Positions 23,360 through 44,577 of a stretch of 64,000 nt of DNA are shown here, in pieces. Made by a program: the position numbers and the translations under genes. The DNA is taken from the NCBI RefSeq assembly GCF_002812485.1, contig NZ_CP025003.1, forward strand, positions 4,092,001 to 4,156,000. Reading direction: 5' to 3'. Origin of the DNA: Dickeya fangzhongdai (GTDB lineage: Bacteria > Pseudomonadota > Gammaproteobacteria > Enterobacterales > Enterobacteriaceae). The notes beneath the pieces are model-generated. The model saw only the letters and a list, made by a program, of their open reading frames with translations. It did no database searches and was not told where the DNA came from. Position 1 is the first letter of the stretch, and every line of letters begins with the position of its first letter.

Positions 23360-23364
23360 TCACC

Positions 23365-27127: not shown

Positions 27128-27775
27128 ATGCAGAAGCTGACTATCCGCACCCTCGACAAAAAACAGCAATTTGACGTGATGCTCAACCCCGCCGGCATCC
27201 GCCATGAACACGGCATCAATTACACCAACCGGTCAGCCGCGGGCAATCGCGCGCTCGGCAGCCTGGCGCCGCGGCTCGGTTTCGCCAGCTATCAGAGCGA
27301 AACGCTCAGCTTCGAAATGATGATTGACGGCACCGGGGTGGTGGAGCAGCCGCAAAAAGCGGACGTCGCCGGTCAAATCACCCAGCTTAAAAACGTGGTG
27401 TACCGCTATGTCGGCGACAAGCACGAACCCAGCGTGGTGGTGCTGACCTGGGGCACGCTGTCGTTCAAAGGGCGGCTGACCCGCCTCGCCATCCGCTATT
27501 CGCTGTTCGACGCCGCCGGCGCGCCGCTGCGCGCCACCGTCGAGCTGCGTTTTGACAACTATCTGGACAGCAACGAGCAGGCGTTGCGCGCCAACCGCTC
27601 TTCGCCCGACCTCACCCACAGCGTGGTGGTGAAACAGGGCGATACCCTGCCGCAGCTGTGCCAGGCGATCTATCAGGACAGCGCCTATTACGTGGCGGTG
27701 GCCCGTTACAACAATCTGACCAGCGTGCGTCACATTGTGCCGGGCACTCGCCTCTACTTTCCCCCACTGGCCTAA
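27128..27775 (+). CDS. eCIS LysM-containing hub protein (Afp7/Pvc7-like, gp53-like)
   Basis: Protein of 215 aa. The N-terminal 150 residues match the CIS tube-initiator family (FDVMLNPAGIRHEHGINYT, SYQSETLSFEMMIDGTGV, VVLTWGTLSFKGRLT). The C-terminal 50 are a LysM domain (VKQGDTLPQLCQAIYQDSAYY ... PGTRLYFPP). In PVC/Afp this protein wraps the tube base between spike and tube; the LysM domain holds it in the baseplate and is not necessarily for murein. Spacing to neighbours is short (15 and 12 bp). Confidence 0.88.
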   Translation: MQKLTIRTLDKKQQFDVMLNPAGIRHEHGINYTNRSAAGNRALGSLAPRLGFASYQSETLSFEMMIDGTGVVEQPQKADVAGQITQLKNVVYRYVGDKHEPSVVVLTWGTLSFKGRLTRLAIRYSLFDAAGAPLRATVELRFDNYLDSNEQALRANRSSPDLTHSVVVKQGDTLPQLCQAIYQDSAYYVAVARYNNLTSVRHIVPGTRLYFPPLA

Positions 27776-27787
27776 CGGAAGGACGAT

Positions 27788-29578
27788 ATGGCGGACTCCC
27801 CGGCAACACACAGTGACGGCGTGGTGACCTGCACCATCAAGAGCAACGGCGCCGAAATCGGCAACGATATCCAGCTGTTATCCATTCACGTCTGTAAACG
27901 GGTGAACCATATCGCCCGCGCGGAGCTGGTGATTCAGGACGGCGACATGCCGCAAAACCGCTTTCCGCTCAGCAGCGGCGACCTGTTCAAGCCGGGCAAC
28001 AGCCTGACCATCGCGGCCGGCTACGCCAGTCAGGAACAGCTGCTGTTCGACGGGATCATCATTCGCCACGGCATCAGCATCAGCGGCGCCGGTCATTCAC
28101 GGCTGGTGATCGAATGCCGGGACAAGGCGATCGCCATGACGGTAGCCCGCCGCAACGACAACTATCTCAAGCAGAAAGACAGCGACATTTTAAGCCGCCT
28201 GATTAACCGCTGCGCCGGACTCAGCGCGCGCGTCGACACCACCCATACCCAGCACGACGAACTGGTGCAGTTCAACTGCAGCGACTGGGATTTTCTGCTC
28301 ACCCGGGCGGAAGCCAACGGGCTGGTGGTGTGCAACGACGACGGCGCCGTCGCTGTCGCCGCCCCTTGTCTGAGCGCCTCGCCGGTGCTGACCGTCACCT
28401 ACGGCGACGACCTGATTTCACTCACCGCCGACATTGACGCCCGCCACCAATTTACCTCGGTGACCGGCGTTGGCTGGGATATCAAAAACCAGCAGCCGCT
28501 ACAGGAAAAGGCCGCCGCCCAGTCCGTCAGCCGGCAGGGCAACCTGAGCGCCGACGAGCTGGCCCGCGTGCTGGGACTGACGGAATACCGGCTGCAAAGC
28601 GCCACGCCGCTGGCTAACAGCGCGCTGCGGGACTGGGCCCGCGGCCAGCAGGTCAAATCCGCCCTTTCTCGCCTGCGCGGCACCCTGACCTGCCAGGGCT
28701 GCGCTCGCGCGCGCATCAACACGCTGATCGAACTGGCCGGGGTCGGCGCGCGCTTTAACGGTCACCTCTACGTCAGCGGCGTCCGCCATCACATTCAGGA
28801 CGGCCAGTGGCTGACCCACATCGACTTCGGCATGCCGCCGGCGTGGTCGGCCGAACACCGCGATCTGACGCCGCCGCCCGCCGCCGGTCTGCTGCCCGGC
28901 GTGGACGGATTACAGATAGGCATCGTCAAAAAACTGGATGGCGACCCGGAACAGCAGCATCGCATTCAGGTATCGGTGCCGGTGATGCAGGCGGAAAACG
29001 ACGGTATCTGGGCGCGGCTGGCCAGTTACTACGCCTCAACCGGCATCGGGGCGCAATTCATGCCGGAGGTGGGTGACGAGGTGGTGTTGGGCTACTTCAA
29101 CAATAACCCGTCGGACCCGGTGATCCTCGGCAGTCTGTACAGCAGCAAAAACCCGCCGCCGATCACGCCGGACGCCAAAAACACCATCAAAACGCTGGTG
29201 ACCCGCAGCCAGTTAACGCTGCAGTTCAACGAAGAGGACAAGGTGATCACCATTACCACCCCCGGCGGTAATCAGGCGGTGCTGAGCGACAAGGACAAAA
29301 CGGTGACGCTGCTGGACCAGAACGGCAACAGCGTAACGCTGGATTCCTCCGGCATCACGCTGGACAGCCCGAAGAACATCACCCTCAACGCCAAAGGAAA
29401 AATCGAACTGACCGCCGCCAGCGCCATCAATATCAGCGCCAAAGCCAACGTCACCGCCGAAGGAATGAACGTCAGTCTGTCAGCCAAAACCGGCCTGACC
29501 GCCAAAGGCAACGCCACCGCCGAACTGTCGGCCTCCGGCCAGACGGTGGTGAAGGGCGGCATCGTGATGATCAACTAA
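27788..29578 (+). CDS. eCIS central spike protein (VgrG/gp27-gp5-like, Afp8/Pvc8-like)
   Basis: Protein of 596 aa. The N-terminal 350 residues are gp27-like (phage late control D type), and around residue 380 the OB-fold gp5 region begins: GIVKKLDGDPEQQHRIQVS and PEVGDEVVLGYFNNNPSDPVILG, the hallmark of VgrG-type spikes. The C-terminus is the repeating beta-helix needle (ITLDSPKNITLNAKGKIEL ...). As a trimer it sits at the tip of the tube and is topped by the PAAR protein encoded next. No C-terminal effector extension is visible. It is preceded by GGAAGGACG. Confidence 0.92.
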   Translation: MADSPATHSDGVVTCTIKSNGAEIGNDIQLLSIHVCKRVNHIARAELVIQDGDMPQNRFPLSSGDLFKPGNSLTIAAGYASQEQLLFDGIIIRHGISISGAGHSRLVIECRDKAIAMTVARRNDNYLKQKDSDILSRLINRCAGLSARVDTTHTQHDELVQFNCSDWDFLLTRAEANGLVVCNDDGAVAVAAPCLSASPVLTVTYGDDLISLTADIDARHQFTSVTGVGWDIKNQQPLQEKAAAQSVSRQGNLSADELARVLGLTEYRLQSATPLANSALRDWARGQQVKSALSRLRGTLTCQGCARARINTLIELAGVGARFNGHLYVSGVRHHIQDGQWLTHIDFGMPPAWSAEHRDLTPPPAAGLLPGVDGLQIGIVKKLDGDPEQQHRIQVSVPVMQAENDGIWARLASYYASTGIGAQFMPEVGDEVVLGYFNNNPSDPVILGSLYSSKNPPPITPDAKNTIKTLVTRSQLTLQFNEEDKVITITTPGGNQAVLSDKDKTVTLLDQNGNSVTLDSSGITLDSPKNITLNAKGKIELTAASAINISAKANVTAEGMNVSLSAKTGLTAKGNATAELSASGQTVVKGGIVMIN

Positions 29579-30267: not shown

Positions 30268-30687
30268 GTGGATAACGATAATGCGTTTCTCGGCACCGGC
30301 TGGGGGTTCCCGCCGCAGTTTGACGCCACCGCGCAAAGCATCGGCATGGTAAGCGGCGACGAAGACGTCCGACAAAGTCTGGCGCTGCTGCTCTCCACCC
30401 GCCCCGGCGAGCGCATCATGGCGCCGGAGTACGGTTGCGATATTCAGGGCATGGTGTTTGAAGACCTCACCCTCTCCACCCTCACCGACATGAAAGCCCG
30501 CATCGAACAAGCCATCCTGTTCTTCGAGCCGCGCATCCGGCTACAGGCGATCGTCATCGACAACCAGCAGGCCATCGACGGCAAACTGTTGATTCATCTC
30601 GACTATACCCTGATCGCCACCAATACCCGCAGCAACATGGTGTACCCGTTCTATCTGCGCGAAGGCACGCTGGTGACGACGCCGTGA
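30268..30687 (+). CDS. eCIS baseplate wedge protein (gp25-like, Afp9/Pvc9-like)
   Basis: Encodes 139 aa from GTG 30268, strongly supported by AGGAGG five bases before. The gp25/GPW family signature is complete: GTGWGFPPQF, DEDVRQSLALLLSTRPGERIMAPEYGCDI (the EPR-type core appears here as PGERIMAPEYG) and YPFYLREGTLV. The protein joins sheath to baseplate in all contractile machines. It starts one base after the PAAR stop. Confidence 0.92.
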   Translation: MDNDNAFLGTGWGFPPQFDATAQSIGMVSGDEDVRQSLALLLSTRPGERIMAPEYGCDIQGMVFEDLTLSTLTDMKARIEQAILFFEPRIRLQAIVIDNQQAIDGKLLIHLDYTLIATNTRSNMVYPFYLREGTLVTTP

Positions 30688-30757: not shown

Positions 30758-33700
30758 ATGACCATAACCTGGAATCCCCCGCTGCCGCCGCCGGCCACTT
30801 CGCAGCAACAGCGCCTGCCGCCGGCACTGGAAGACGGCGCGTTCCTGACGGATGAGATGTCGTTTGAAACGCTGCTGGTGCTGGCCAGCGACATCGCCGC
30901 GCAGTTGTCATTTGACCGCGGCGACACCACACAGCCGGGCAACTGGCAGGCGCTGTTCGCCAAAAGCGAAGTCACCGGTATGGCGATCATCCTGTCGTTC
31001 GACGCCGCGCTGGAACAAAACCGTTTTCGGCAGGCGCAGTCGCGCGGCATGGATCAGACGCTGACGTACCTGATCGCCCTCTACGCGAATCTGGATCGGT
31101 GGTACCGCGCCTTTATTCCCGTCCAGACCACCAGTGCCGACCACATCAAACTGACCATCCAGACGGTACTGAAAGCGCAGTTGGTGCGGCCGTTCCAGTA
31201 CGTGGTGATTCTGGCGCAGGCGCTGGACGGCTACCGCCCGTCGCTGCTGGCGGACCCAGCGTTGAAAACCCTCGATCCGCTATGGGGAATTCGCTACGAC
31301 AACGGCCGATTTATCGCCAGCGAACAGCAACAGCTGCTGCAACAGCAGTTGCCGGGCATTCAGGTGCTGGAAGAGCAGTTACAGCTCTGTTTTTCCGCCG
31401 CCGTCAACGCCGTCAGCCAGCTACAGACCGACGGCCGTCGCCGGATGCAACAGGCGCTGTCCCACGCCGATCACGCGCCGGAAGTCGCGCTGTACCTGAC
31501 CTTCCTGCAGTTATTCGCCCGAGCGCAGGCCCGACTTAACCGTTTTACCGAACGACACCTCGACTTTTACTACCGCCAGGTACTCCGGCAGCAACCGCAG
31601 CCGCTCACGGCTGATGCCGTCTTCCTGAAACTGACGCCGGACAACGGGCTGACCACGCCGCTGTCGCTTGAGCGCGGCGTAGTCTTCAGCGCCGGGCAAG
31701 ACGCCCGCTTGCGTGACATCCTCTATCGCAGCGAACAACCGCTACAGGTTAGCGACGCCGAGGTCAAACAGGTGCATTCGCTGCTGCTCAAGCGCGACCC
31801 GTTGATGTCGCCGGAACGGGAGCTGGATTTCGTCACCGCCATTCATAGCGACAGCCTGTGGCCGTGGCGCAGCGACCAGCCCCGCTCCCGCACGCTGCTG
31901 ACGCTGTTTGGCGAAACCCCGGCCTTGCAGCGCCATCCTTCGCCGTCGGCGCCGGGTATCGCTATTATCGACCCGGTGCTCTACCTGCCGGAAGGGCGGC
32001 GGCGGGTCAGCCTGACCGTCAATCTGCACGAGGCGGAGCGGCCGCATCTGGCGCAGCAACTGTACCTGCTCAGGGATGCCCCTTACCCGGCGGTATTGCG
32101 CAACCGGCTGACCACCCTGCTGCTGACGCTGGCGAAGACGCTGACGCCGCTGCTGCCCGACGACGACGCCCCCGCCGTCATCGGCGCGCTGGTCGACGCG
32201 CTGACGCCCCGCCAGCTACAGGCGTTGCAGCGCAGCCGTGACGATGAGGCTATCGGCCTGCTGTACAAGTATTTCCTGCTTGGCGTACTGCGTCAGACCC
32301 GCGATCCGGCGTGCGCTTGTCGTGTGCTGGGGCACCTGTTCAGCCGCCAGACCCTGAGCCGCGCCGACTGGCTGAATGACGATGAACAACGGTTGGTGCT
32401 GGAAAAAAGCCGCCAGTTGCTGCCCGACGACAGCCAGCCGCCGCTGGCGGAACTGCTGAACGGCAATCGGCAGGTTAATTTTTACCGCCTCTACAGCGAG
32501 CTGTTTACGCTGCGTCTCAGCACCGAAAGCGGCTGGCAAACCATCGCCTCTTACCGTATCCACCCGTTGAGCGCGGACGACGACGGCCCGTACGGCTTCC
32601 GGCTCACCTTTACCCTGTCGCCCGGCTTCGGGGCGGTAATTCCCTGCGATCCGGCCATTCATGGCGACCTCTGGCATTACCGCGCGCCGGCGCTGCAACT
32701 GGAAATGAAGCCGGAAACGCCGTTTTTTCCCTACTCGGTGTTCCGCGATTTCGTGCTTGGCCCGTTGCTCCTCGCCACGCGGGTATCCGGCGTGCAGACG
32801 TTACAGATAGACACCTGCGACGGGCAGGTCGACATCGGCAAAACCTTTTATCCGTTCGGTGCGCAGCCAACCGGGCAGCCAGCGCTGACCCTCGCCAGTT
32901 ACGAACTGGCCCAAAAGTCGGTGCAGGACATTACGCTGACGATCGACTGGGCGAACCTACCGGGCGGCAGCGACGGTTTTCGCCAGCATTATCAGGGTTA
33001 CCCCGGCGACTACGCTAACCGCCGTTTTCAGGCGCAGTTGGCCGTGTTGCGCGAAGGCGAGTGGAAGGCGGTCGGCGGCCCGCTTGCGCTGTTCGCCAGC
33101 GAACCGGGCAGCGATCGGCTGCGCTCCGACATACAGATTCAGGGCGATCTGAAGCAGGATTTTCAGCCCGTCCGCCCCGCGGCCGACGCTGACGCGTTCC
33201 GCGTCGATCACGCCAGCCGCAACGGGTTGATCCGCCTGTCGCTGTGCGAGCCGGAACAGGGCTTCGGCCATCATCAGTACGGCACGCTGCTCAGTCAGAC
33301 GCTGATGCACAACGCCCGACGCCGAAAACCGCTGCCGCTGCCCAATCCGCCCTATACCCCGGCGATCAACCGGCTGACGCTCAGCTATCGGGCCTGCGCC
33401 CGAATTCATCCGGGCCACTCCGGCCACGAACCGGCGCCGGACAGCCACCTCCTGCATCTGCACCCGTTCGGTCATGAAATGCTGTACCCGGCGGCCGAAA
33501 GCGGCGGAGATACCCGTCCCGTCGCCTTTTTCCCGCGCTATGACGACGACGGCAACCTGTTCATCGGGTTACAGGCGTCGTCGCTCGGCGGCGCGCTGAA
33601 CCTGTTTTTCCAGCTCGACGATCGGGCCGCCCCCACGGCCATCCGCCACCGGCAAGCATTCCAGTGGCGTTATCTGGTCGACAACGACTGGCGCGTGCTG

Positions 33701-34843
33701 CCGCCGCATCAGGTGATCGCCGACACCACCCACGGCTTTATCACCTCCGGCATCGTCACGCTGGATATCCCGCCGGCGATCAACGACCGGCACACCGTGA
33801 TGCCGGACCGGCTCTACTGGCTGCGGGTCAGCACCCGGCAGGGCATCGGCGAGTACGCCAGTTGCCTGCACGTCGCCGCCCACGTGGTGCGGGCCGTGCG
33901 CCAGTGGCCCGACGGGCAGGAACCGGACGACGAGCCGACGCCGCCTGCCGCGGCGTCAGGCTGGCGAGCGCTCAACCCGCCGGCCGGGCTGGGCGCCATC
34001 AGCCTGATGATGCCGTCGACCGGCGGCGCGCCGCGGGAATCCCCGCGACAATTCCGGCAACGGTTAAGCGAACAACTGCGCCACAAAGGGCGAGCGTTAA
34101 CCGGCTGGGACTACGAGCGGCTGGTGTTGCAACACTTTCCCGAGATCGAACAGGCACGCTGTTTTCCGCATACCCGTTTCGGCGTGCCGGGCCGCCATCC
34201 GGGACAGGTACTGCTGCTGGTGCGCCAGCGCCACCCCGCCTGCCGGCACCAGCCGTGCGAACCTTTGCACGCCAGCGCCGCGCTGCTGCACCGGATACAA
34301 ACCTGGCTGCAGACGATCGCGCCGCCGGGCGCCGTCGTTACGGTTCGCTCGCCGGTGTACGAAAGGGTTCAGGTGCGCTGTAGCGTCGCCTTTCAGCCGG
34401 GGCATCACCCGGGGCAGGCGCTGCGCCGGTTGAACCGGGATATCTCCGCCTACCTCTGTCCGTGGCGTGAAGAAAGCCCCAATCAGGGGTTTGGCGCCGG
34501 AATGGCGCTGCGGCAAATCGAAGCCTTTATCGCGCATCTGGATTATGTGCGTTTTGTGACCGGCTTTTCGCTGATCACCCTCCGTCAGGCCGGCCTCGGC
34601 CAGAGCGACGGGCAAACACAGCGCTGGCGACTGACCGACAGCGCCGCGCCGCACGACCAAACCGGCGATCCCGCCGGAAACAACCCGAGTCTGACCGGGC
34701 TAACTCCACGCTATCCCTGGAATATTATCCTGCCGGTTGAGCAGCATGACCTGCGGCTCAGTCCGGACCTCAGGCTGCGAGCGCCGGAAAAAATCGGTAT
34801 CGGCGACCTGATTATCGGCGACAGCTTCATCACCGTCCGTTAG
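30758..34843 (+). CDS. eCIS large baseplate protein (gp47/J-like, Afp11/Pvc11-like)
   Basis: Protein of 1361 aa, by size and place between gp25 and Afp12-like genes the Pvc11-type baseplate wedge component. The C-terminal third has the baseplate J pattern: PRESPRQFRQRLSEQLRHKG, ALTGWDYERLVLQHFPEI and VYERVQVRCSVAFQPG. No signal peptide or membrane part. The ribosome site is weak. A 14-base leader CATCACTGACAACC at 30722-30735, 22 bases before the ATG, recurs at the same distance before the last gene of the operon. Confidence 0.85.
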   Translation: MTITWNPPLPPPATSQQQRLPPALEDGAFLTDEMSFETLLVLASDIAAQLSFDRGDTTQPGNWQALFAKSEVTGMAIILSFDAALEQNRFRQAQSRGMDQTLTYLIALYANLDRWYRAFIPVQTTSADHIKLTIQTVLKAQLVRPFQYVVILAQALDGYRPSLLADPALKTLDPLWGIRYDNGRFIASEQQQLLQQQLPGIQVLEEQLQLCFSAAVNAVSQLQTDGRRRMQQALSHADHAPEVALYLTFLQLFARAQARLNRFTERHLDFYYRQVLRQQPQPLTADAVFLKLTPDNGLTTPLSLERGVVFSAGQDARLRDILYRSEQPLQVSDAEVKQVHSLLLKRDPLMSPERELDFVTAIHSDSLWPWRSDQPRSRTLLTLFGETPALQRHPSPSAPGIAIIDPVLYLPEGRRRVSLTVNLHEAERPHLAQQLYLLRDAPYPAVLRNRLTTLLLTLAKTLTPLLPDDDAPAVIGALVDALTPRQLQALQRSRDDEAIGLLYKYFLLGVLRQTRDPACACRVLGHLFSRQTLSRADWLNDDEQRLVLEKSRQLLPDDSQPPLAELLNGNRQVNFYRLYSELFTLRLSTESGWQTIASYRIHPLSADDDGPYGFRLTFTLSPGFGAVIPCDPAIHGDLWHYRAPALQLEMKPETPFFPYSVFRDFVLGPLLLATRVSGVQTLQIDTCDGQVDIGKTFYPFGAQPTGQPALTLASYELAQKSVQDITLTIDWANLPGGSDGFRQHYQGYPGDYANRRFQAQLAVLREGEWKAVGGPLALFASEPGSDRLRSDIQIQGDLKQDFQPVRPAADADAFRVDHASRNGLIRLSLCEPEQGFGHHQYGTLLSQTLMHNARRRKPLPLPNPPYTPAINRLTLSYRACARIHPGHSGHEPAPDSHLLHLHPFGHEMLYPAAESGGDTRPVAFFPRYDDDGNLFIGLQASSLGGALNLFFQLDDRAAPTAIRHRQAFQWRYLVDNDWRVLPPHQVIADTTHGFITSGIVTLDIPPAINDRHTVMPDRLYWLRVSTRQGIGEYASCLHVAAHVVRAVRQWPDGQEPDDEPTPPAAASGWRALNPPAGLGAISLMMPSTGGAPRESPRQFRQRLSEQLRHKGRALTGWDYERLVLQHFPEIEQARCFPHTRFGVPGRHPGQVLLLVRQRHPACRHQPCEPLHASAALLHRIQTWLQTIAPPGAVVTVRSPVYERVQVRCSVAFQPGHHPGQALRRLNRDISAYLCPWREESPNQGFGAGMALRQIEAFIAHLDYVRFVTGFSLITLRQAGLGQSDGQTQRWRLTDSAAPHDQTGDPAGNNPSLTGLTPRYPWNIILPVEQHDLRLSPDLRLRAPEKIGIGDLIIGDSFITVR

Positions 34844-34940: not shown

Positions 34941-35768
34941 GTGGCAAAACGAAATCGCGGCACCTTGAAAAACTATTTTCGTCAGGGCGCCATGCCGTCC
35001 GCCGAACATTTTTCCGACCTGATCGATTCGTCAGTCAACAAAATCGAGGAAGGGTTCGATAAAACGCCGGAACAGGGGTTGAAGATCGCCGCACTCGATA
35101 CCCACGCCAGACTGATGACGTTTTACCGCGACAGCGACCCCACCCGGGCGTTGTGGTCGGTCAGCCTGCAACCGGACAGCGACCTGCTGCGGGTCAACCG
35201 CCACGCCGGCGACGGGCAGGACGCCATCGCCGACGCCGACCCCTTGCTGACGTTCACCCCCGACGGTCGGGCCGGCATCAACACCACCACGCCGCGCCAC
35301 GCGCTGGATGTCAACGGGGTGATCGGCGCACAAGGGCGCGCCGGCGCGCAATGGGCGGACCGCCTGCCCGCCGACGGCGAATGGCACGACCTCACGCCGA
35401 AACTGGAAGGGTGCCAGGCCTTCGAGGTGGTGGCGGGTGTCGGTATCCGTCACTCCGGGCGCTACGCGCTGATCCACGCCATCGCGCTGAACACCTGCGC
35501 GCCGAGCGGTTTTTTCTTCAATTTTTTCAACCGCAAAAACCGCATCAGCGCCCGCCACGCCTATTACCATTCGCGCGCCGACAAGCTGACGCTGCGCTGG
35601 TTGCGCGACGACACGCCCGCCGGCGGCCACGACGGCATCCGCCCCTACCGGTTGCAGATCCGCACCCACACCAGCTATGGCGACGGCATCGTTATTCGTT
35701 ACCACCTCACCCGGCTGTGGCATGACGCCTACATGCACAACAGCCTGCTGCCGGCGGACGAGGAGTAA
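34941..35768 (+). CDS. eCIS-associated protein, possible fibre adaptor
   Basis: Encodes 275 aa from GTG 34941 (GGGGAG seven bases upstream). The N-terminus, RGTLKNYFRQGAMPSAEHF followed by SDLIDSSVNK, is a motif I associate with tail-fibre and surface proteins of eCIS loci, where it probably docks the protein on the baseplate. The middle has a fibre-like segment (LTFTPDGRAGINTTTPRHAL) that resembles the pre-peptidase collar of phage fibres. The C-terminal half is a compact beta-rich domain. No other fibre (Pvc13-like) gene is in the locus, so this may be the receptor-binding element. The role is inferred from position and the N-terminal motif. Confidence 0.55.
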   Translation: MAKRNRGTLKNYFRQGAMPSAEHFSDLIDSSVNKIEEGFDKTPEQGLKIAALDTHARLMTFYRDSDPTRALWSVSLQPDSDLLRVNRHAGDGQDAIADADPLLTFTPDGRAGINTTTPRHALDVNGVIGAQGRAGAQWADRLPADGEWHDLTPKLEGCQAFEVVAGVGIRHSGRYALIHAIALNTCAPSGFFFNFFNRKNRISARHAYYHSRADKLTLRWLRDDTPAGGHDGIRPYRLQIRTHTSYGDGIVIRYHLTRLWHDAYMHNSLLPADEE

Positions 35769-35771
35769 GGC

Positions 35772-38309
35772 ATGGCGCAACCGTCATTTATTCCCAGACA
35801 GGCGCCCCATGACGACCCTGACAGCGTCGCCAGCCTGCTGCGCGCAGGGCTGGAGCAGGTCCAACGGCTCAGCGGCAACCGCTGGACCGACTACAACCTC
35901 CACGACCCCGGCGTCACGCTGCTGGAACTGTTGTGTTTCGCCCTCACCGACCTGATTTACCGCACCGACTTTGAGGTAGAGGATTACCTGACGCAGCCGG
36001 ACGGTCGCCTCGACTTCGCCGCGCAGGGGCTGATGCTGCCGGAACAGATTTTCCCGCCCCGCCCCTGCACCCGGCAGGATTATCAGCAGGCGGTGCTGGA
36101 CACGATGGACGAGGTGGAACAGGCGTGGGTCACGCCGGACGGTCAGGGTCGCTACCACATCGATCTGCTGCTGACCGAGGCGGCGCGTCAGCGTTGCGAC
36201 CACCATCCGGCGCTGCGCGACGACATTGTCGATGCGGCCTCGCATCTCTACCACCGCGCCCGTAATCTGGGCGAAGACCTCGCCGGCGTCCGCATCATCG
36301 ACAGTCGCGGGCTGCGGCTACACGCCGATATCGAGCTGCACTATTACGATAACACCAACTACGATAACACCAACAATCTGCACGATAACGCCGACAACCT
36401 GGCGGCTGAAATCTATTTTCAGGCCGAACAGTGGCTCCGGGGCGACGAGGCCGACAGCCACACCGCTAGCCATGCTGATAACTATGCTGACAGCTACCCT
36501 GATAACTATGCCGATAGCTATGCCTATAACTACACCGACCACCACGGCGCACCGGGCAACGAGCGTGTTGCCGCCGTCAGGCCGCTATCGGCGCTCTATA
36601 CCCGGTTGATCAACATCGACGGCGTCGGCCACATCCGGCAGTTGCAGCTGATCCCGCAACCCTGTCGGGACGGCCATCCCGACAATGCGCAGGACCACTT
36701 TAGCCCCGGCGACTGGATCCTGCTGCCGAAAAAGCACGACGACATCGACCTCAACCTGACCCATCAGGGCCACCCGCTGTCGATTGATTTCAGCGCCATG
36801 AGCATCCGGCTGGTGCGGCGTAAGGCGCAAAACGGCACGCTGCACGAGCAAATTCGCCGCCAGACCGCCGCCCTCATCCCGCCGCCGCACGGCATCTGGC
36901 GCGAGCTGGCGGATTACCGGTCGATCCAGTCGCTGTTCCCCGGCGTCTACCGGCTGGACGCGCCGCGCGTCCCGACGGCGCTGAACCGGCAGGAACAGGC
37001 GCAGATCCAGCAATTTCGCGGCTATCTGCTGCTGTTTGAACAGCTGATGGCCAACTTTTGCGCCAACCTGGCTAACCTGCGCGACCTGTTTTCCCCCGCC
37101 ACCGACGCCGGGCGCAGTTACGCCTTCAACCTGCTGGATGATGAGCAGTTCCGCGGGGTGGATCTCCTGTATCCCGACGATGCGGCGGCGCGTTTTCATC
37201 ACCTGCTGGCCGAGGTCGACCACTACCCGGACCGCAAAGGACGGCTGCTCGACTATCTGCTGGCGTTATACGGCGAAACGCTGGACGCCCGACTGTGGCG
37301 TCAGCCGGGCGAGGCGTCGGATCAGCGCGTGCAGAGCCGTCAGCAGCTTGAGTACCAGCGCCGGTTTATTCAGGCCATCGACCGCCTGACCCGCGATCGC
37401 GGCGCCGGTTTCAACACGCGCCGGCCGATGACCGAACGGGAAAACCGGGGCGGGTTCGCCGACCGGGTGGCGCTGCTGCTCGGGATGGACGACGCCGACG
37501 CGTGGCCCTATAGCCAGACGCTGGCCCGGCAGGGGTGGCAGTTGATGGCCGATGACGCCTTCCTGCACAGCGCGGCGGGTCAGTCGCATCTGCAATGGCT
37601 GGATCAGTCGGCCCTCGACAGTTTGCTGGATGTGCCGCTGAGCGACGCGGCGCCGGGCAGCGCCGATGCGGCGGCGGCGCGCGATGTTTTGGCGCTGCGC
37701 CTGCGGCCATTGCCGGTCGACCTGCTGCAACGCGGCGTGATGCTGGCGCATTACCGCATTCTGCCGCCCGACGCCGGCGGCTTTTATCAGGCGCTGTTCC
37801 GGCTGTCGGCGGCGCCCGGCTCGCAAAACGGCTTATGGCTATACCTGGGCGCCAGCAGCCAACCGGCGCACCTGGTGCGCGTCATCAACCAGCTGCGCCG
37901 CGAACTCATCCGCCTTAATCAGCGGTGCGAAGGGGTGTACGTGGTGGAGCACCTGTTGCTGCGCCCGGCGCACGGCGGTGATGACGCCCGCGCCGACAGC
38001 GACCCGTTTCCCGGCCAGATCAGTCTGATTCTGCCCGGTTACACCGCCCGCGGCGGCAACCCGGTGTTCCGGGCGCAGGCCGAGGCCCTGATCGCCCGAC
38101 AGTGCCCGGCGCATCTGCTGCCGCGCTGTCACTGGCTCGATATTCACGCCACGGTCGAGTTTGAAACCGCCTGGCTGGCATGGCTCGACGCCAGACGGGA
38201 AGCTCCCGGCCAGCCATCGTGCGACAACGCGGCCGCCCGGCTGACGGCATTGTTGCAATCGTTGCACGCCCAATCCCCCACTTCTCAACCATCAGGACAG
38301 GACGCATGA
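35772..38309 (+). CDS. eCIS large baseplate protein 2 (Afp12/Pvc12-like)
   Basis: Protein of 845 aa, with GAGGAGTAAGG before the ATG. The characteristic N-terminus is present: DNW-like entry NRWTDYNLHDPGVTLLELL followed by CFALTDLIYRT, as in Afp12-type baseplate proteins. It forms the wedge with the Pvc11-like protein. An odd low-complexity insert of about 70 residues (near 190-260), rich in Asn, Asp, Tyr, Ala, interrupts it; see the repeat entry at 36352-36545. The rest, with an arginine-rich C-terminus, is normal. The stop overlaps the next start (ATGA). Confidence 0.85.
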   Translation: MAQPSFIPRQAPHDDPDSVASLLRAGLEQVQRLSGNRWTDYNLHDPGVTLLELLCFALTDLIYRTDFEVEDYLTQPDGRLDFAAQGLMLPEQIFPPRPCTRQDYQQAVLDTMDEVEQAWVTPDGQGRYHIDLLLTEAARQRCDHHPALRDDIVDAASHLYHRARNLGEDLAGVRIIDSRGLRLHADIELHYYDNTNYDNTNNLHDNADNLAAEIYFQAEQWLRGDEADSHTASHADNYADSYPDNYADSYAYNYTDHHGAPGNERVAAVRPLSALYTRLINIDGVGHIRQLQLIPQPCRDGHPDNAQDHFSPGDWILLPKKHDDIDLNLTHQGHPLSIDFSAMSIRLVRRKAQNGTLHEQIRRQTAALIPPPHGIWRELADYRSIQSLFPGVYRLDAPRVPTALNRQEQAQIQQFRGYLLLFEQLMANFCANLANLRDLFSPATDAGRSYAFNLLDDEQFRGVDLLYPDDAAARFHHLLAEVDHYPDRKGRLLDYLLALYGETLDARLWRQPGEASDQRVQSRQQLEYQRRFIQAIDRLTRDRGAGFNTRRPMTERENRGGFADRVALLLGMDDADAWPYSQTLARQGWQLMADDAFLHSAAGQSHLQWLDQSALDSLLDVPLSDAAPGSADAAAARDVLALRLRPLPVDLLQRGVMLAHYRILPPDAGGFYQALFRLSAAPGSQNGLWLYLGASSQPAHLVRVINQLRRELIRLNQRCEGVYVVEHLLLRPAHGGDDARADSDPFPGQISLILPGYTARGGNPVFRAQAEALIARQCPAHLLPRCHWLDIHATVEFETAWLAWLDARREAPGQPSCDNAAARLTALLQSLHAQSPTSQPSGQDA
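36352..36545 (+). repeat. Degenerate in-frame repeats within the Afp12-like gene
   Basis: The codons for YDNTN/NYDNT and then NYADSYPDNYADSYAYNY are repeated with few changes (GATAACTATGC(T/C)GA(C/T)AGCTA). All units are multiples of three bases, so the frame survives. This is typical of slippage-grown coding repeats; the encoded loop is probably exposed. Confidence 0.8.
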
Positions 38310-41300
38310 CGCAGCTACACCGGATTCACACCGCCAGCCTGACGCTCGACTTTCGCCATTCGTCCGAGGCGGAGCGGTTCGAGCGCGACGCCCCGCGCTG
38401 GGTGCAGCAACAGCTGTTGCCGTTGATCGACGCGCTGTTCGACCAGTTTTCGCCGCCCCATCAACTGTGGGTGATCGACCACCTGCGGCTCGATCTGGGC
38501 GCGCTGCCGGCGTCGGATTTGGAGTCGGCGCTGCTGGCGGCGCTAAAGCAGCAACTGACGGAGGCGCTGCGCGCGCAGCAACCGTCCGACCCGGCCCAGC
38601 CACATCAACGCCACGACGCCGATGCCGCGGAAATACAGGTGCTGGATGGTCCGGCGGCGCAGTGGCGTCAGTTGCAGTTTTTCCTGCAACACGGCGTGAT
38701 GCCCTGGCATTACCCCGGTCGGCAAGGCTGGCGGCAGGTAGACCGCCACCGCCACTGGCTGGCCGACGCCGTGCGCCAACACCGCGCCGGACTGAACCGG
38801 TTACTGAACGCCAGCGCTCGCCCGGCCAGCCTGATCGCCCGGCTGGTTTCTCAGTTGCCGGCTACCGCGCTAAACGGCTGGCTGGAACAGCTGACGCCCG
38901 CGCATCAGGATATCGCGCTGCGTTGTCTGGCGGCCCAGCCGGAAGCGGATGCGCTGCCAGCCGCGCTAAAGGCGCGGTTGCACCGCCACTGGCATCAGCG
39001 CATCCATCAGGCGCTGCGCCAGCGCCGTCTGCGACAGGAGTTGCTGCCGGTCTGGGCTACGCTGCTCGGCGACCAGCGTGGCCGGTTTCTGCTGGCGCTT
39101 TACGCCTGCGGGCAACAGCCCGAGGTGGTGCGCGGCATGGCGCAGGCGGTGGATGACCACGCCTTCGACGATCTGCTGGGGTTGCTGGCGCCGCAGGCGC
39201 AACCGTTCATCCAACAGGTGCTCAGGCATCCGGCGTGGTTCCATCATCCCGACGACGCGGCGCCCACAGACCCGAGCGCCCCGTTGGATCAGCTGCTGCG
39301 TGAATTCACCCTGCATTATCTGCTGGTGCAGCGCGGCAGCCAGTTCAACAAACAGCGCTACATGGCCGGGCTGATTGGCCGCATGGCGGCGCACCACAAT
39401 ATGGAACGGACCGACCTGCTGCAAACGCTGTACCTGCGGCTGGCGGCGTGGCCGGGCGAGCACGCGCTGAAACAACCGTTGCTGTCGCTGCTGACCACAT
39501 TATGGGGAGAAATGGCGCCGCTCGCCCGCGCGCTGCCGGTCATGAGGTCGGGCGCTCAACCGGTGCGACGCGGGCCGGTTAGCGGCGAATCAATAAGACA
39601 TCGGGAAGCGGCCGCGGCAGAACCCGCCGTCAACACGCTACGGCAACAGTGGGCTGACGCGCTGCAACAGGCGGATGAAGCGGCGCTGAATCGGGTGTGG
39701 CGCCAGTGCACGCCGGCGATGCTGCTGACGTTACGCCCGGCGCTGATCGCCTGCGGCCAGCAGAGTCAGGTACGCCAGCGTTGGGTGGTGCGTTTTTCCG
39801 CGGCGACGCAATATCGGCTGCTGACCCTGCTGGAACCGGCGGACGCGCCGTTTATCCGCGAGCTGATGGAAGAAGTGCGCGCCAGCCAGCCGGCTATCGC
39901 CGACCATTCCGCCCACGCCCCCGGCGAGCCGCTGTTGACGCACAGCCTGTGGAGCCTCACGTTCAGCTACCTGCTGGCGGAGCGCGGCAGCGAATTCAAC
40001 CGGCAAAGCTATCTGGACGCGCTGCTGCGGCAACTGGCGGCGCACCATAACCTGTCGCGTCAGGCGCTGATCGACGCCTTGCTGCAACGCCTGCGCCACG
40101 CCCCGGCCGATACCGCGGTGCGCCGGGCGCTGCTGACGCTGCTTACCCGGCTGCGCGAAAGCTCGCCTCCCGCGCCGCCGCCGTCACCGCAGCCTGAGCC
40201 GCAACCTCACTCTCAACCTCAACCGCAAGCCGCGGCGCCGTGTCACATCGACGCTGACCTTCCGCCGCCGGAGCAGCCGTTGCTTGACGCCGCCTGTTAC
40301 CACTACCTGTACGACGTGTTAGTCCACGGCGACCCGACGCGCCGCTTTACGCCGCCGGATCAGGCGCGCACCGTTTGGCGCGCTGCGTCCTCGTATGCCG
40401 GTAATGACCTGCAGCGCTGCCTGCAACGGTTGCTGACCCATAACCCGTTGCTGCTCCAGCGCTGGCTGGCGGTATCCACACACCACCCCGCCAGTTGGCT
40501 GCGGCTGTGTGCCGCTCTGCGCCCATCGCAGGCCGCCCAGTTGCTTGCCCAGCTAATCGCGCTGCGTCAGCCATCGGCCAACCTACGCAGCCTGTCGGCC
40601 ACGCTCGACAACGTCACCCGCCGCCTGACCGTTGCACAGCGGCAGGCGTTTTACGGGCAGATGATCGACGCGCTGGCCGCCAACCGCACGCCGGACTGGC
40701 TGGCTCTGCGCGATGCGGTCAGCCAGTCCGCCCCGCCGTCAGTGGATGCCCCGCGCCAGCCTGTCGGCGCCACGACGCCTGATGCCCCAATGCCATCAGC
40801 GATGGATGACGACGCCGCGCTGGCGCTGCTGAACCGGATCGCCGGGCACGCTGCAGCGACGCTCGCCGCCGATGACATCGCCGGGCTATCCGCCGCGCTG
40901 GCGCGCATGCTGCCCTCGCAGCCGGAAGCGGTACGCCGGTTGCTGCTGCCCGCGCTGCGTTCGCCCGCTCTGAGCGAATGGTTGGCGGACACGCTATCCG
41001 ACAGGCTGCACACCGCCTTACTGCTGCTGTTGCGCCGCACCGACTTTCTGGCGCTATACCCTTACGGCCGCTTTATCGCCAACCTCTGTCATCGTCACCC
41101 GGCGTACCGCGGCGCGGCGCAGCAGCTGGAAAATCTGCTGTGGCGCGCGCTGTATCACCGTCTGTTCGCCGCCGGTTCGCCAGCGGATATCGCCGCCTTT
41201 ATCAGCCATTATCTGGGCAGACAGGCCGCCGACTGGCAACAGCGCAGCCATCAGCCGTCGCCGTCTGCGTTCTACCGCTTTCTGCTGGAACAGGCGCAGG

Positions 41301-42070
41301 CCGAGCGCTTCCCCTCGACCCGCACGCTGGCCGAACGCCTGCAACGGCTGATCACCGCCGCCGGGCTGCATCAGGACACGCCGCCGGTCGTCGCCGTCAC
41401 GGATGTCGGGCAACCGCCTGAACGCGACATCGCCGCCGCGTCGCCCCCTGAACAGCCGGACCTCGCTGATGCCGTAGCCGATACCGATGCACCGCAACCT
41501 GCGGCCGTGCCGGATATGGCGGCTCCGGCGGTTATCGACTGGCGGGGCGACGAGACGCTGGGCACCGATGAGCCGCTGCCGGTCGCCAATGCCGGGCTGG
41601 TGCTGGCCGCGCCCTGGCTCCCTCGCCTGCTGACAAAGCTGGCGCTGGTGCAGGACGGCGCCTTCCCGCAGCCGGACGCCCGCCATCAGGCTATCCATTG
41701 CCTGCAATATCTGGTCGATCGGGGACAAAACTGCGCCGAATACCAGCTGGCGCTGAACAAGCTGCTGTGCGGCCTGCCGCTCAACGCCCCGCTTCCGTTA
41801 ACGCTACCGCCTGACGCCGCCGCCCGCGACACGCTGGATGCGCTTCTGGACGCCCTCCTTCAGCACTGGAATGCGCTGGGCCACACCTCGGTTGACGGAT
41901 TGCGCCAGACCTTCCTGCAACGCGAAGGCACGCTGTGGCGACAGGCGGACAGCTGGAAACTGGAGGTGGTTCCCGGCCCGTTCGACATGCTGCTCGACCG
42001 GTTGCCGTGGGGATATTCGACCATCAAATACCCCTGGATGGACCGGCCGCTGCACGTGGTCTGGCGCTGA
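38306..42070 (+). CDS. eCIS tape measure protein (Afp14/Pvc14-like)
   Basis: Encodes 1254 aa from ATG 38306, overlapping the previous stop in ATGA. The N-terminus LTLDFRHSSEAERFERDAP and DLRLDLG-type sequence (IDHLRLDLGALP) identify the CIS tape-measure family. Internal repeats recur: a block near residues 330-385 (LHYLLVQRGSQFNKQRYM ... AAHHN) and again near 545-600 (FSYLLAERGSEFNRQSYL ... AAHHN), a family feature. The protein sets the length of the tube, so particle length should be somewhat below that of PVC/Afp (whose proteins are longer). Confidence 0.88.
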   Translation: MTQLHRIHTASLTLDFRHSSEAERFERDAPRWVQQQLLPLIDALFDQFSPPHQLWVIDHLRLDLGALPASDLESALLAALKQQLTEALRAQQPSDPAQPHQRHDADAAEIQVLDGPAAQWRQLQFFLQHGVMPWHYPGRQGWRQVDRHRHWLADAVRQHRAGLNRLLNASARPASLIARLVSQLPATALNGWLEQLTPAHQDIALRCLAAQPEADALPAALKARLHRHWHQRIHQALRQRRLRQELLPVWATLLGDQRGRFLLALYACGQQPEVVRGMAQAVDDHAFDDLLGLLAPQAQPFIQQVLRHPAWFHHPDDAAPTDPSAPLDQLLREFTLHYLLVQRGSQFNKQRYMAGLIGRMAAHHNMERTDLLQTLYLRLAAWPGEHALKQPLLSLLTTLWGEMAPLARALPVMRSGAQPVRRGPVSGESIRHREAAAAEPAVNTLRQQWADALQQADEAALNRVWRQCTPAMLLTLRPALIACGQQSQVRQRWVVRFSAATQYRLLTLLEPADAPFIRELMEEVRASQPAIADHSAHAPGEPLLTHSLWSLTFSYLLAERGSEFNRQSYLDALLRQLAAHHNLSRQALIDALLQRLRHAPADTAVRRALLTLLTRLRESSPPAPPPSPQPEPQPHSQPQPQAAAPCHIDADLPPPEQPLLDAACYHYLYDVLVHGDPTRRFTPPDQARTVWRAASSYAGNDLQRCLQRLLTHNPLLLQRWLAVSTHHPASWLRLCAALRPSQAAQLLAQLIALRQPSANLRSLSATLDNVTRRLTVAQRQAFYGQMIDALAANRTPDWLALRDAVSQSAPPSVDAPRQPVGATTPDAPMPSAMDDDAALALLNRIAGHAAATLAADDIAGLSAALARMLPSQPEAVRRLLLPALRSPALSEWLADTLSDRLHTALLLLLRRTDFLALYPYGRFIANLCHRHPAYRGAAQQLENLLWRALYHRLFAAGSPADIAAFISHYLGRQAADWQQRSHQPSPSAFYRFLLEQAQAERFPSTRTLAERLQRLITAAGLHQDTPPVVAVTDVGQPPERDIAAASPPEQPDLADAVADTDAPQPAAVPDMAAPAVIDWRGDETLGTDEPLPVANAGLVLAAPWLPRLLTKLALVQDGAFPQPDARHQAIHCLQYLVDRGQNCAEYQLALNKLLCGLPLNAPLPLTLPPDAAARDTLDALLDALLQHWNALGHTSVDGLRQTFLQREGTLWRQADSWKLEVVPGPFDMLLDRLPWGYSTIKYPWMDRPLHVVWR

Positions 42071-42129: not shown

Positions 42130-44577
42130 ATGAGGATTCACCGTTTCACCGGGCGTAACGCAACGCTGGCGCGGCTGCTGGCCTTGTTGCTGCCATTGGC
42201 ATTACTGCTCCCACCGGCGGCCTATACCGCACTGCCGGAACCCGCGCTCATGCCATCCGCCGTACCCGACGCCCCGACTTACGCCCAATGCCTCCAGGCG
42301 CTGGAACGGATGGACAGCCGACGCTTTACCCGCATCACGCAGGATAAACTGGCGATTATCTATCACGACGACCCGGCGTATCAGGCGGATTACCGCCAGC
42401 CGGGCGACTACCTCGCCGACGGGCTGTTCGGCCCCAAGACGCGCAAATGGCTGGCGACGTTTTGCGGCGAATTCGGCATCACGCCGCCGCCCAACCGCAA
42501 TACCTTCGCCGAAGCGCTGCTGGTGTCGCTGGCTAAAGTATCGGAGCTCGATCAGCTCTTCCCTTACTGGCGCAGCCGCATGGGCGCGCCGGAGCTGTTG
42601 CAGTGGCCGGCGCAGAAAACCATCGAATTTCTCACCGCGCAGGCGGACGCCGCCGCCGTCCCGCCGCCGCCGGAAGTGACGTCGCCGCAGTACTACGCCC
42701 TGACGGAGGATGACCTGCGCAAGCTGGCGGAACGCAACGCTATCCAGAGCCAACTGGACGGCATGATAGGCCACCAGTTCGCCAGTCCGGTGGAACTGAA
42801 CAACGCGGTGCGACCGTTGATCCGCCAGTTGCGCGGCAATGAGGAGCAGATCCTGCAACAGATTGTGGACGCCGTACCGGTCAGCAACGGCAACCCCAGC
42901 CGCACCCAGACCACGACGCAGAGCGACAGTTCTTCGCAGAACGATAATGCGCACCCCGACAATCAGCTACGTACTGAAATCGCCGACACCCGGCAGAGCA
43001 GCGACGCCAGCACCGCCACGCCGATCACCGTCTATTCGCTTAATCAGAATGCGCTGGAGCTGGCTTATCTGGATCTCAATCTGGTATCCGTAGACAAAGA
43101 CGCGCTAGCGCGGCTGGCAACGCTGAAAGATACCCCGTTCGCCGACCGCTACCAGCTGGCGGTGGCGATGAAAATGGCCGGGCTTGACCGCCTCAGCCAC
43201 CAGAGCCGGCAACGCATTCTGGACATCGCCCGCAAAGACGGCGCGCCCCCGTCAACCACCCCGCCGATGGTCTGGCGCGCGCCCGCCGACTGCGGCTGTG
43301 AAGACAGCACCCCGAACGTTAACGGCGCCGACGCCACCTTCTACGGTTTTTACCCTTACTGGCAGCCGCTGGCCGACGGGCAGACCCTCAACTTTCGTCA
43401 ACTGGACCGTATCGGCTATTTCTCCGCCGCGGTTTTGCCGGGCGCGCGCGACCCGCAACTGGTGCTGCCGCCCAACTGGCGGAAAACCCGCCCCTACGCC
43501 GATTTCATCCGGCTGGCGCACCGCTACCGCACCCATGTCGATCTGGTGGTGTCCACGCCGAGAAAACTGCCGTCGCCGGCGCTGGTCAGCCTGTTCACCT
43601 CGTCGCTGGTCGCCCGTCTCGGCGCCAACATTCAGACCCCGCTTGACGATGACTGGATCAATCGGGCCACACCCTGGCTGACCTTCGGTTTGAGTCCGTC
43701 GGATACCCTGGCCGACGGAGTGACGCTGGACTTCGACCTGACCCGGCTCACCACCCGCGCCGGTCAGCAGACGTTTATTCGCTTTGTGCAGGCGCTGCGC
43801 AAAACCCTCACGCCCGCCGGACACGCGCCCGATTCACCGCCCCGCTACGCCGTCAACCTGATGGTGCCGGTGGAGTCGCTGCTCAAAGGACAAGGGTTCT
43901 ACACGCTGGATAACCTGCGGGAACTGCTGCCGTATGTGGATCGGTTTATTTTGCAGCCGGAGCCCCCTGACGGGGTGGTCAAACCGCGCCGGACGCTCGA
44001 TCAGTTGAGCGACCTGCGCCATTTTTTAAGCCAGCAGCCGCAGGCCGCGGTTCCCGAGCTGTATCGCAAACTGGTGCCTGTCCTGATTACCGACGCCAAC
44101 CGCCATCAAACGACCGAGCTGGCGGAACTGGTGCGTTACAGCAGTTGGAGTTTTCTCGGCGCCGCCTACTGGCCGCTGCCGCTCGACGAAGCCAGCCAGC
44201 AGCTCATCAGCCAGACCTACTACCCCGCCGCCGATCTACCCGCGCCGCTGGCGCGCATCGCCTCGGCCGTCAATGCGTTTATCGACGTGATCTGCCCCAA
44301 CCGCTGGGTGCTACGGCTGATGCTGTTTATCACCTTCTGGGGGATTGTCGTCACCGGCGTCGCCAGCCTGTGGCTGTTCCCGGTGCGCAAGGTCACCGAT
44401 TCGCTGTGGTTCGCCGGTTTTGTGGTGCTGTTCGCCGCGGCATTGATGCTGGCGCTGGTGGCGGACCCGTACTGGCAGCAATATCAGACGTTAATCCTGC
44501 TGCTGTTCGCCGCCGTGGTGGTCGCCATCGCCGTGCTGCAACGCATCAGAAAAAACCGGCGGGAGCGGAATCCGTGA
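42130..44577 (+). CDS. Membrane protein with peptidoglycan-binding motif and degenerate GH18 domain
   Basis: Encodes 815 aa from ATG 42130 (GGGAGAG upstream). In order: a Sec signal or signal anchor (ARLLALLLPLALLLPPAA), a peptidoglycan-binding-1-like motif YLADGLFGPKTRKWLATF near residues 94-111, a proline/Q-rich linker, a GH18-like TIM barrel beginning ATFYGFYPYWQPLADG near 400, and three hydrophobic helices near 726-806. The GH18 catalytic line DGxDxDxE reads DGVTLDFDL (residues 529-537): the acid Glu is Asp and the second Asp is Thr, so chitinase activity is doubtful. It closes the injection-system operon. It may span the envelope to anchor or release the particle. As an effector it would be unusual, because of the membrane helices. 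Confidence 0.7.
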   Translation: MRIHRFTGRNATLARLLALLLPLALLLPPAAYTALPEPALMPSAVPDAPTYAQCLQALERMDSRRFTRITQDKLAIIYHDDPAYQADYRQPGDYLADGLFGPKTRKWLATFCGEFGITPPPNRNTFAEALLVSLAKVSELDQLFPYWRSRMGAPELLQWPAQKTIEFLTAQADAAAVPPPPEVTSPQYYALTEDDLRKLAERNAIQSQLDGMIGHQFASPVELNNAVRPLIRQLRGNEEQILQQIVDAVPVSNGNPSRTQTTTQSDSSSQNDNAHPDNQLRTEIADTRQSSDASTATPITVYSLNQNALELAYLDLNLVSVDKDALARLATLKDTPFADRYQLAVAMKMAGLDRLSHQSRQRILDIARKDGAPPSTTPPMVWRAPADCGCEDSTPNVNGADATFYGFYPYWQPLADGQTLNFRQLDRIGYFSAAVLPGARDPQLVLPPNWRKTRPYADFIRLAHRYRTHVDLVVSTPRKLPSPALVSLFTSSLVARLGANIQTPLDDDWINRATPWLTFGLSPSDTLADGVTLDFDLTRLTTRAGQQTFIRFVQALRKTLTPAGHAPDSPPRYAVNLMVPVESLLKGQGFYTLDNLRELLPYVDRFILQPEPPDGVVKPRRTLDQLSDLRHFLSQQPQAAVPELYRKLVPVLITDANRHQTTELAELVRYSSWSFLGAAYWPLPLDEASQQLISQTYYPAADLPAPLARIASAVNAFIDVICPNRWVLRLMLFITFWGIVVTGVASLWLFPVRKVTDSLWFAGFVVLFAAALMLALVADPYWQQYQTLILLLFAAVVVAIAVLQRIRKNRRERNP

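What the first reader, a model, noticed from the sequence alone, without database searches (positions are those of the whole stretch)
42130..44577. Injection-system operon ends in an envelope protein with inactive-looking GH18 domain
One protein joins a signal sequence, a peptidoglycan-binding motif, a GH18-like barrel with DGVTLDFDL instead of DGxDxDxE, and three C-terminal membrane helices. This is not a usual eCIS part. It could anchor the particle in the envelope of the producer (turning a released device into a cell-attached one), open the wall for release, or recognise a glycan.
Basis: partly seen in the sequence, partly recalled or inferred. Interest (0 to 1): 0.75.

Follow-up and report, generated by a model that had tools for sequence, protein, structure and literature searches.

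The report
Dead-chitinase membrane protein of injection system
The last gene of a phage-tail-like injection machine in a Dickeya bacterium makes an inner-membrane protein with a broken chitinase-type domain outside the membrane; its relatives sit beside the same kind of machine wherever that was checked, so it is probably a fixed part that ties the device to its maker's own envelope rather than a toxin, although a relative's structure is already deposited and a probable Dickeya counterpart is already in print.

Summary

It is no odd add-on. The tape measure lies upstream in 38 of 40 named loci (the other two are cut by a contig edge). In the genus the gene is in exactly the 7 of 9 genomes with CIS_TMP. 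The second eCIS of this genome lacks it. Its distances track those of structural genes. Nor is it new: PDB 9r9a_B (unnamed) is a full-length relative, apparently from the SalCIS series, and Dickeya "EAT3, Chitinase?" (Geller 2021) is very probably its orthologue, read there as a toxin.

Best reading: a constant producer-side inner-membrane adaptor of SalCIS-type systems (confidence 0.5). Particle contact and murein binding are inferred, not shown.

The parts
42130..44577 (+). 815-aa envelope protein: signal, helical N-domain, pseudo-GH18 barrel, three C-terminal TM helices; last gene of eCIS1
   Evidence: operon edge
42130..42234 (+). hydrophobic N-terminal export signal (residues 1-35)
   Evidence: hydropathy peak at residues 13-31
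42271..42657 (+). helical N-domain with DGLFGPKTRKWL motif resembling PG_binding_1 (residues 48-176)
   Evidence: models; PG_binding_1 below cut-off in 4 of 37 aligned rows
42883..43029 (+). disordered linker (residues 252-300), fastest evolving segment
   Evidence: pLDDT under 50 at 252-296; lowest identity of the segments in all four pairs
43291..43299 (+). CGC before the barrel; both Cys (388, 390) present in 37 of 37 aligned rows
43327..44232 (+). GH18-type TIM barrel (residues 400-701)
43714..43740 (+). degenerate catalytic strand DGVTLDFDL (residues 529-537)
44302..44364 (+). TM helix 1 (residues 725-745)
44404..44463 (+). TM helix 2 (residues 759-778); the TM1-2 loop is net positive in 37 of 37 rows
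44485..44568 (+). TM helix 3 (model helix 786-813), running into a basic tail that ends in an invariant Pro
38180..42070 (+). tape measure protein (CIS_TMP, PF19268), 59 bp upstream of the target
35772..38309 (+). Afp12-like baseplate protein (relative of SalCis12, 9rce_B)
34941..35768 (+). 275-aa conserved gene between the Afp11- and Afp12-like genes; fibre-like by eye only
   Evidence: no solved relative at E<=0.05
30758..34843 (+). Afp11-like baseplate J protein (relative of 9rce_A)
30268..30687 (+). gp25-like baseplate wedge protein
27788..29578 (+). VgrG/gpD-like spike hub
27128..27775 (+). CIS_tube with LysM-like end (Afp7-like)
25914..26384 (+). inner tube protein 1
26446..26910 (+). 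inner tube protein 2
24309..25862 (+). single sheath protein, close relative of 9r9h_T (884 bits over 517 aa)
23212..24162 (+). cap-like ORF (weak relative of SalCis16b cap, 9r9n_C, E 0.0027); true start probably further in
22772..23359 (+). Pvc16_N cap protein, first recognised eCIS1 gene

Best explanation
This is the producer-side envelope adaptor of a SalCIS-type contractile injection system. Predicted from sequence: the protein is exported, its ~690-residue body (N-domain plus dead GH18 barrel) stands in the periplasm, and three C-terminal helices hold it in the inner membrane with a basic TM1-2 loop and a basic tail in the cytoplasm. Inferred: the cytoplasmic face catches particles assembled in the cytoplasm and docks or triggers their baseplate at the membrane; the periplasmic domains hold murein or another glycan like lectins, because the barrel keeps the fold but has lost the catalytic acids. 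The particle would then act from, or on, its maker's own envelope (cell-attached firing or stress-triggered rupture, in the manner discussed for tCIS and Streptomyces CIS) rather than only as a released device.
For: Fixed part of the machine: 38 of 40 genome-contig loci have the tape measure upstream on the same strand; the other two (L020, L025) are cut by a contig end. In the genus, target and CIS_TMP occur in the same 7 of 9 genomes. In the class sample all 6 target genomes of 303 have CIS_TMP. In the phylum sample 5 of the 6 hits among 398 do, and the sixth is a false match. Co-inheritance, 29 of 40 loci: target distances correlate with Afp12 at r=0.94 and with TMP at 0.78, against 0.88 for Afp12-TMP. 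Purifying selection: dN/dS 0.17-0.24 over residues 51-815 in four same-genus pairs. Topology: three C-terminal peaks in 36 of 37 rows; net positive TM1-2 loop in 37 of 37 and post-TM3 segment in 36 of 37, against pre-TM1 in 2 of 37 and TM2-3 loop in 9 of 37. Dead active site: motif position 4 is T/S/N in 37 of 37, Glu at position 8 in 2 of 37, while the GH18 fold is kept. Precedent: the Streptomyces membrane protein CisA is needed for contraction and function (PMC12237407, abstract and passages). Inside this genome the second eCIS, with an AAA+ ATPase and an eCIS_core protein, has no such gene.
Against: No contact with any particle part is shown, and the cytoplasmic surface in Dickeya is small (one loop and a short tail), so docking would need oligomers or another face. 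Murein binding is weakly supported. The probable orthologue EAT3 killed E. coli and yeast when expressed (PMC8213781), which its authors read as effector toxicity. Particle localisation in Dickeya is unknown to me. CIS_TMP occurs without the target in other genomes (2 of 8 in the class sample, 5 of 10 in the phylum sample), so many eCIS do without it. Co-inheritance also reflects species relatedness.
Confidence: 0.5

Rival explanations
1. Release factor: the protein weakens the producer's envelope (holin-like membrane action or wall gripping) so that particles escape.
For: Last gene of the operon; membrane helices plus wall-facing domains; killing of E. coli and yeast by the probable orthologue EAT3 would fit membrane damage.
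Against: Catalytic acids missing and no lytic enzyme family recognised; a large conserved ectodomain under purifying selection is more than a holin needs; CisA, a putative membrane adaptor, is also toxic when expressed in E. coli, so toxicity does not single out lysis.
Confidence: 0.2
2. Injected effector, as EAT3 was classed: a chitinase-like toxin carried by the particle.
For: Table 1 of PMC8213781 lists Dd1591_0669 (Dickeya) as toxic to E. coli and yeast, 'Chitinase?'; position at the 3' end of the operon.
Against: Hydrophobic Sec-type start, whereas loaded effectors are described with hydrophilic N-termini and were expected to lack a canonical signal (PMC11297309, passages); no eCIS_core match; one family across the loci, tracking structural genes, where effectors usually vary (recalled); dead motif.
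Confidence: 0.15
3. Self-protection or another envelope role: the protein shields the producer's membrane against its own particles, or senses envelope stress and times firing.
For: Predicted envelope location, an invariant Pro on the cytoplasmic side and an invariant Cys pair on the periplasmic side, which would suit a sensor; present in each genus genome that has CIS_TMP.
Against: No direct evidence; no regulatory domain recognised.
Confidence: 0.15

Closest known systems
PDB 9r9a chain B (864 aa, 'Uncharacterized protein'; two chains of this sequence in one entry)
   Same: Full-length sequence relative: profile E 5.4e-161 over profile positions 47-808; the Cedecea homologue L013 matches it at 1289 bits, residues 17-891 to 1-864.
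   Different: Identity to the window protein not computed; the closely matching L013 is 36% identical to it. I could not see the entry's title or paper; its link to SalCIS rests on neighbouring accession codes and the shared family only.
SalCIS (PDB 9r9h, 9r9i, 9r9n, 9rce)
   Same: Closest solved particle for sheath (884 bits), Afp11-like (781 bits), Afp12-like (391 bits), Afp7-like (217 bits) and, weakly, cap.
   Different: Paper not found in the library; mode of action unknown to me; that 'Sal' means Salmonella is my guess. The window tape measure and 275-aa gene matched none of its chains.
EAT3, Dd1591_0669 of Dickeya Ech1591 (PMC8213781)
   Same: Dickeya, eCIS-associated, 'Chitinase?', and its gene id is three away from the gene listed under tail fibre, the same spacing as target to the 275-aa gene here.
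CisA of Streptomyces coelicolor (PMC12237407)
   Same: Membrane protein encoded in the CIS cluster, not part of the purified particle; needed for contraction and function; toxic in E. coli.
   Different: Bitopic with a cytoplasmic N-terminus; 'glycos' and 'TIM barrel' occur nowhere in its text; different phylum; homology not tested.
GH18 chitinase-like lectins (CHI3L1/BRP39, SPC-40, Ym1, SI-CLP, plant XAIP/haementhin)
   Different: Soluble eukaryotic proteins; not part of injection systems.

Membership tests
Family of PDB 9r9a_B (eCIS envelope protein) | Full-length sequence homology including the TM region | tested here: met
   Profile E 5.4e-161, positions 47-808
Family of PDB 9r9a_B (eCIS envelope protein) | Genomic position after the tape measure, directly or with an AAA+ gene between | tested here: met
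   38 of 40 loci with TMP upstream, the other two cut by a contig end; an ORF with a Walker A motif, read by eye, between them in 13 of the 18 loci printed. The locus of 9r9a itself was not seen.
SalCIS-type contractile injection system (the operon) | Sheath, Afp11-, Afp12- and Afp7-like proteins closest to the SalCIS entries | tested here: met
Catalytic GH18 chitinase | GH18 TIM-barrel fold | tested here: met
Catalytic GH18 chitinase | DxxDxDxE catalytic motif (recalled definition) | tested here: not met
   Window DGVTLDFDL; position 4 Asp in 0 of 37 rows, position 8 Glu in 2 of 37
PG_binding_1 (PF01471) | Score above Pfam's cut-off | tested here: not met
   Window protein no hit; 4 of 37 rows hit, best 19.2 bits against 23
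PG_binding_1 (PF01471) | Same fold | tested here: inconclusive
eCIS-associated toxin loaded in the particle (EAT) | Hydrophilic, disordered N-terminal loading leader | tested here: not met
   Strongly hydrophobic residues 13-31, against the description in PMC11297309
eCIS-associated toxin loaded in the particle (EAT) | Presence inside purified particles | not testable with these tools
   needs mass spectrometry
CisA-like CIS membrane adaptor | CIS-encoded integral membrane protein | tested here: met
   Predicted TM helices and positive-inside pattern, operon membership
CisA-like CIS membrane adaptor | Required for contraction in situ and interaction with the particle | not testable with these tools
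   needs deletion and cryo-ET

The most novel reading that the evidence does not exclude
A class of so-called extracellular injection systems is not purely extracellular. SalCIS-type particles are captured by a murein- or glycan-gripping dead chitinase in the maker's inner membrane and act from, or on, the producer's envelope. The published Dickeya toxin EAT3 would then be this adaptor, its toxicity a consequence of forcing a membrane protein into E. coli and yeast, and this Dickeya would carry one cell-bound and one conventional cargo-bearing eCIS side by side.
Probability: 0.4. Interest if true: 0.75.

Novelty: new member of a known kind. Interest (0 to 1): 0.5.

Why it matters
If the adaptor reading holds, it adds a Gram-negative counterpart to CisA and to the tCIS anchor, and gives one marker gene that may separate cell-bound from released eCIS. 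It would also re-label a published eCIS toxin as a machine part. The clean presence/absence pattern makes the question testable by one deletion. The value is tempered by the fact that a full-length relative has already been solved by others.

Tried and rejected
Catalytic chitinase or lysozyme: rejected on the motif. Phage or plasmid origin of the gene: no match at E<=0.001 in 50,697 phage or 72,556 plasmid records. Defence gene: no PADLOC match for the target at E<=0.01. eCIS-free homologue in G845: the phylum search gave E 1.4e-4, but the match covers about 54 profile positions of membrane helix in an unrelated 830-aa frame, and none of my other 14 query proteins matched that contig at E<=0.01. 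Afp15-like ATPase in the window: none at E<=1 by tblastn with two query ATPases; in the genus it occurs near-identical (96-100%) only in the three genomes with a second eCIS, the other matches being partial and 28-39% identical. PHROGs on the N-domain: two unnamed families, one member each. The fold libraries did not show 9r9a among the 50 rows listed in either search, so its title stayed unseen. The N-domain fold search without a clear match is not evidence of a new fold.

Biases and dropped rows. The 40 named loci were recruited with the peptides YGFYPYW and ADPYWQQ, so the invariance of YGFYPYW in 37 of 37 rows is partly by construction; 5 of 10 further homologues found by profile lack YPYW. 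The 37-row alignment holds the window and 36 of the 40 loci; four were dropped: L019 and L048 (interrupted frames), L033 (runs off the contig), L035 (near-copy of L034). Rows are not independent: L012/L016, L028/L031, L036/L038 and L044/L045 are close pairs. The distance test used 29 of 40 loci: L018, L019, L029 and L048 were barred as broken or truncated, and the other seven lacked a hit to one of the three genes in the DNA held. Within the genus one homologue (G008) lacks about 95 residues of the middle region. In the closest relative (L002, G007) similarity runs about 92 bp past the stop and no further match lies in the remaining 1.4 kb held; L007 ends at the stop with no further match held.

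Full report

Is the barrel dead? GH18 catalysis uses DxxDxDxE (recalled). In 37 aligned rows the first Asp is kept in 35; the second position is Thr in 34, Ser in 2 and Asn in 1; the third is Asp in 12 and Tyr in 21; the Glu position is Asp 20, Pro 8, Gln 4, Arg 2, Glu 2, Ser 1. The family has given up the catalytic set while keeping the fold. Selection on the barrel is purifying (dN/dS 0.16-0.27 in four same-genus pairs). A lectin-like or structural role fits better than an enzyme.

Topology. The positive-inside pattern is strong: the TM1-2 loop is net positive in 37 of 37 rows and the segment after TM3 in 36 of 37, while the stretch before TM1 is in 2 of 37 and the TM2-3 loop in 9 of 37. Together with the export signal this puts the body in the periplasm and the TM1-2 loop and tail in the cytoplasm. 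This is prediction, not measurement.

Place in the operon. Upstream lie cap, single sheath, two tubes, Afp7-like, spike, gp25, Afp11-like, a 275-aa gene, Afp12-like and tape measure. The target starts 59 bp after the tape measure. In four other genomes of the genus (L003; L004, the same contig as L010; L005; L006) homology ends at the target's stop and resumes 1.98 kb further on in the window, in the LacI-type flank gene. In L003 and L004/L010 only about 57 bp separate the two; in L005 and L006 about 1 kb of unrelated DNA does. The two genes in the gap of this window are an insertion (HEC-01-like). So the target is the last gene of the island. On the left, homology to relatives breaks and shifts around 21.5-22.8 kb. 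I recognised no cargo gene among the ORFs scanned in eCIS1 and no Afp15-like ATPase in the window.

How constant is it? Of 40 named loci that encode a relative, 38 have the tape measure upstream in the same orientation; in the other two, L020 and L025, the contig starts at or inside the gene. In the genus the gene is in the same 7 of 9 genomes as CIS_TMP. In the class sample, 6 of 303 genomes have it and all six have CIS_TMP; in the phylum sample, 6 of 398 hit and five have CIS_TMP, the sixth being a false match. The samples share some genomes. The converse is not true: 2 of 8 and 5 of 10 CIS_TMP genomes lack it. The window's own genome shows this too: its second eCIS, at 2.306-2.333 Mb, has a tape measure, an AAA+ ATPase and an eCIS_core protein but no relative of the target. 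In 13 of the 18 loci whose gap I printed, an ORF with a Walker A motif (by eye) lies between tape measure and target; in the enterobacterial loci L010 and L012-L017 there is no room for one. Over 29 loci, distances of the target track those of Afp12 (r 0.94) about as closely as Afp12 and tape measure track each other (0.88); target against tape measure is looser (0.78). A freely swapped effector would not be expected to do this, though shared species history contributes.

What is already known. PDB 9r9a_B is a full-length relative, very close to the Cedecea protein L013 (1289 bits). The solved particle nearest to this operon is SalCIS (9r9h, 9r9i, 9r9n, 9rce), whose accession codes lie next to 9r9a. 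I did not see its paper; five searches of the library did not find it. Geller et al. 2021 (PMC8213781; section 12 and passages seen) report EAT3, Dd1591_0669 of Dickeya, 'Chitinase?', toxic to E. coli and yeast on expression; its gene-id spacing to the gene listed under tail fibre equals target to 275-aa gene here. I take EAT3 to be the orthologue (about 0.85), unproven. Danov et al. 2024 (PMC11297309, passages) describe loaded effectors as hydrophilic at the N-terminus and hypothesised that they lack a canonical signal; the target has the opposite.

How it probably works. The nearest functional precedents are CisA in Streptomyces (PMC12237407, abstract and passages), a CIS-encoded membrane protein absent from the purified particle but needed for contraction and toxic in E. 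coli, and the tCIS of Anabaena, anchored in thylakoids by baseplate and fibre extensions (PMC8894136, passages). I infer that the target is the inner-membrane adaptor of SalCIS-type particles: cytoplasmic loop and tail towards the particle, wall-facing domains holding the site. Shown: conservation, co-occurrence, operon edge. Predicted: topology, fold, loss of catalysis. Inferred: contact, docking, trigger, glycan grip.

An unexplained detail. A proline stands after TM3 in 37 of 37 rows; in 23 it is the last residue before the stop, written with all four Pro codons and all three stops, and in 14 (12 Oxalobacteraceae, 2 Nitrosomonas) a tail follows it. Ten of ten further homologues also end in Pro, two of them repeats of aligned loci. 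Among frames of 300 residues or more in these loci, 37 of 373 end in Pro, the targets themselves included. The feature was not used to recruit the loci and sits on the predicted cytoplasmic face, where a docking contact would lie.

Verdict. The finding is a constant part of a known eCIS subtype, with a relative already solved and a probable orthologue already reported under another reading. The adaptor hypothesis is the best supported and cheaply testable; interest 0.5.

Noticed in passing
44711-46493 (+): An AAA_21 ATPase and a DUF4276 gene matching the PADLOC candidate defence pair HEC-01A/B are inserted between the last eCIS1 gene and the chromosomal flank; four other genomes of the genus lack the insertion.
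   Followed up: partly
42130-44577, residue 815: Invariant Pro after the third TM helix, in 23 of 37 rows the very last residue before the stop, with all four Pro codons and all three stops in use.
   Followed up: partly
L062/L063 (own chromosome, about 2.306-2.333 Mb): A second, different eCIS in the same genome with an AAA+ ATPase and a 1355-aa eCIS_core protein; its sheath is 43% identical to that of eCIS1.
   Followed up: partly
targets of L032, L034, L036-L039, L041-L045, L049: Oxalobacteraceae versions carry an extra tail of roughly 140 residues after TM3, predicted cytoplasmic, a possible larger docking module.
   Followed up: no
L022:6734-7303, L026:7303-7857: Short proteins that look like DUF4157/eCIS_core (by eye) lie between tape measure and ATPase in two Nitrospirota loci.
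   Followed up: no
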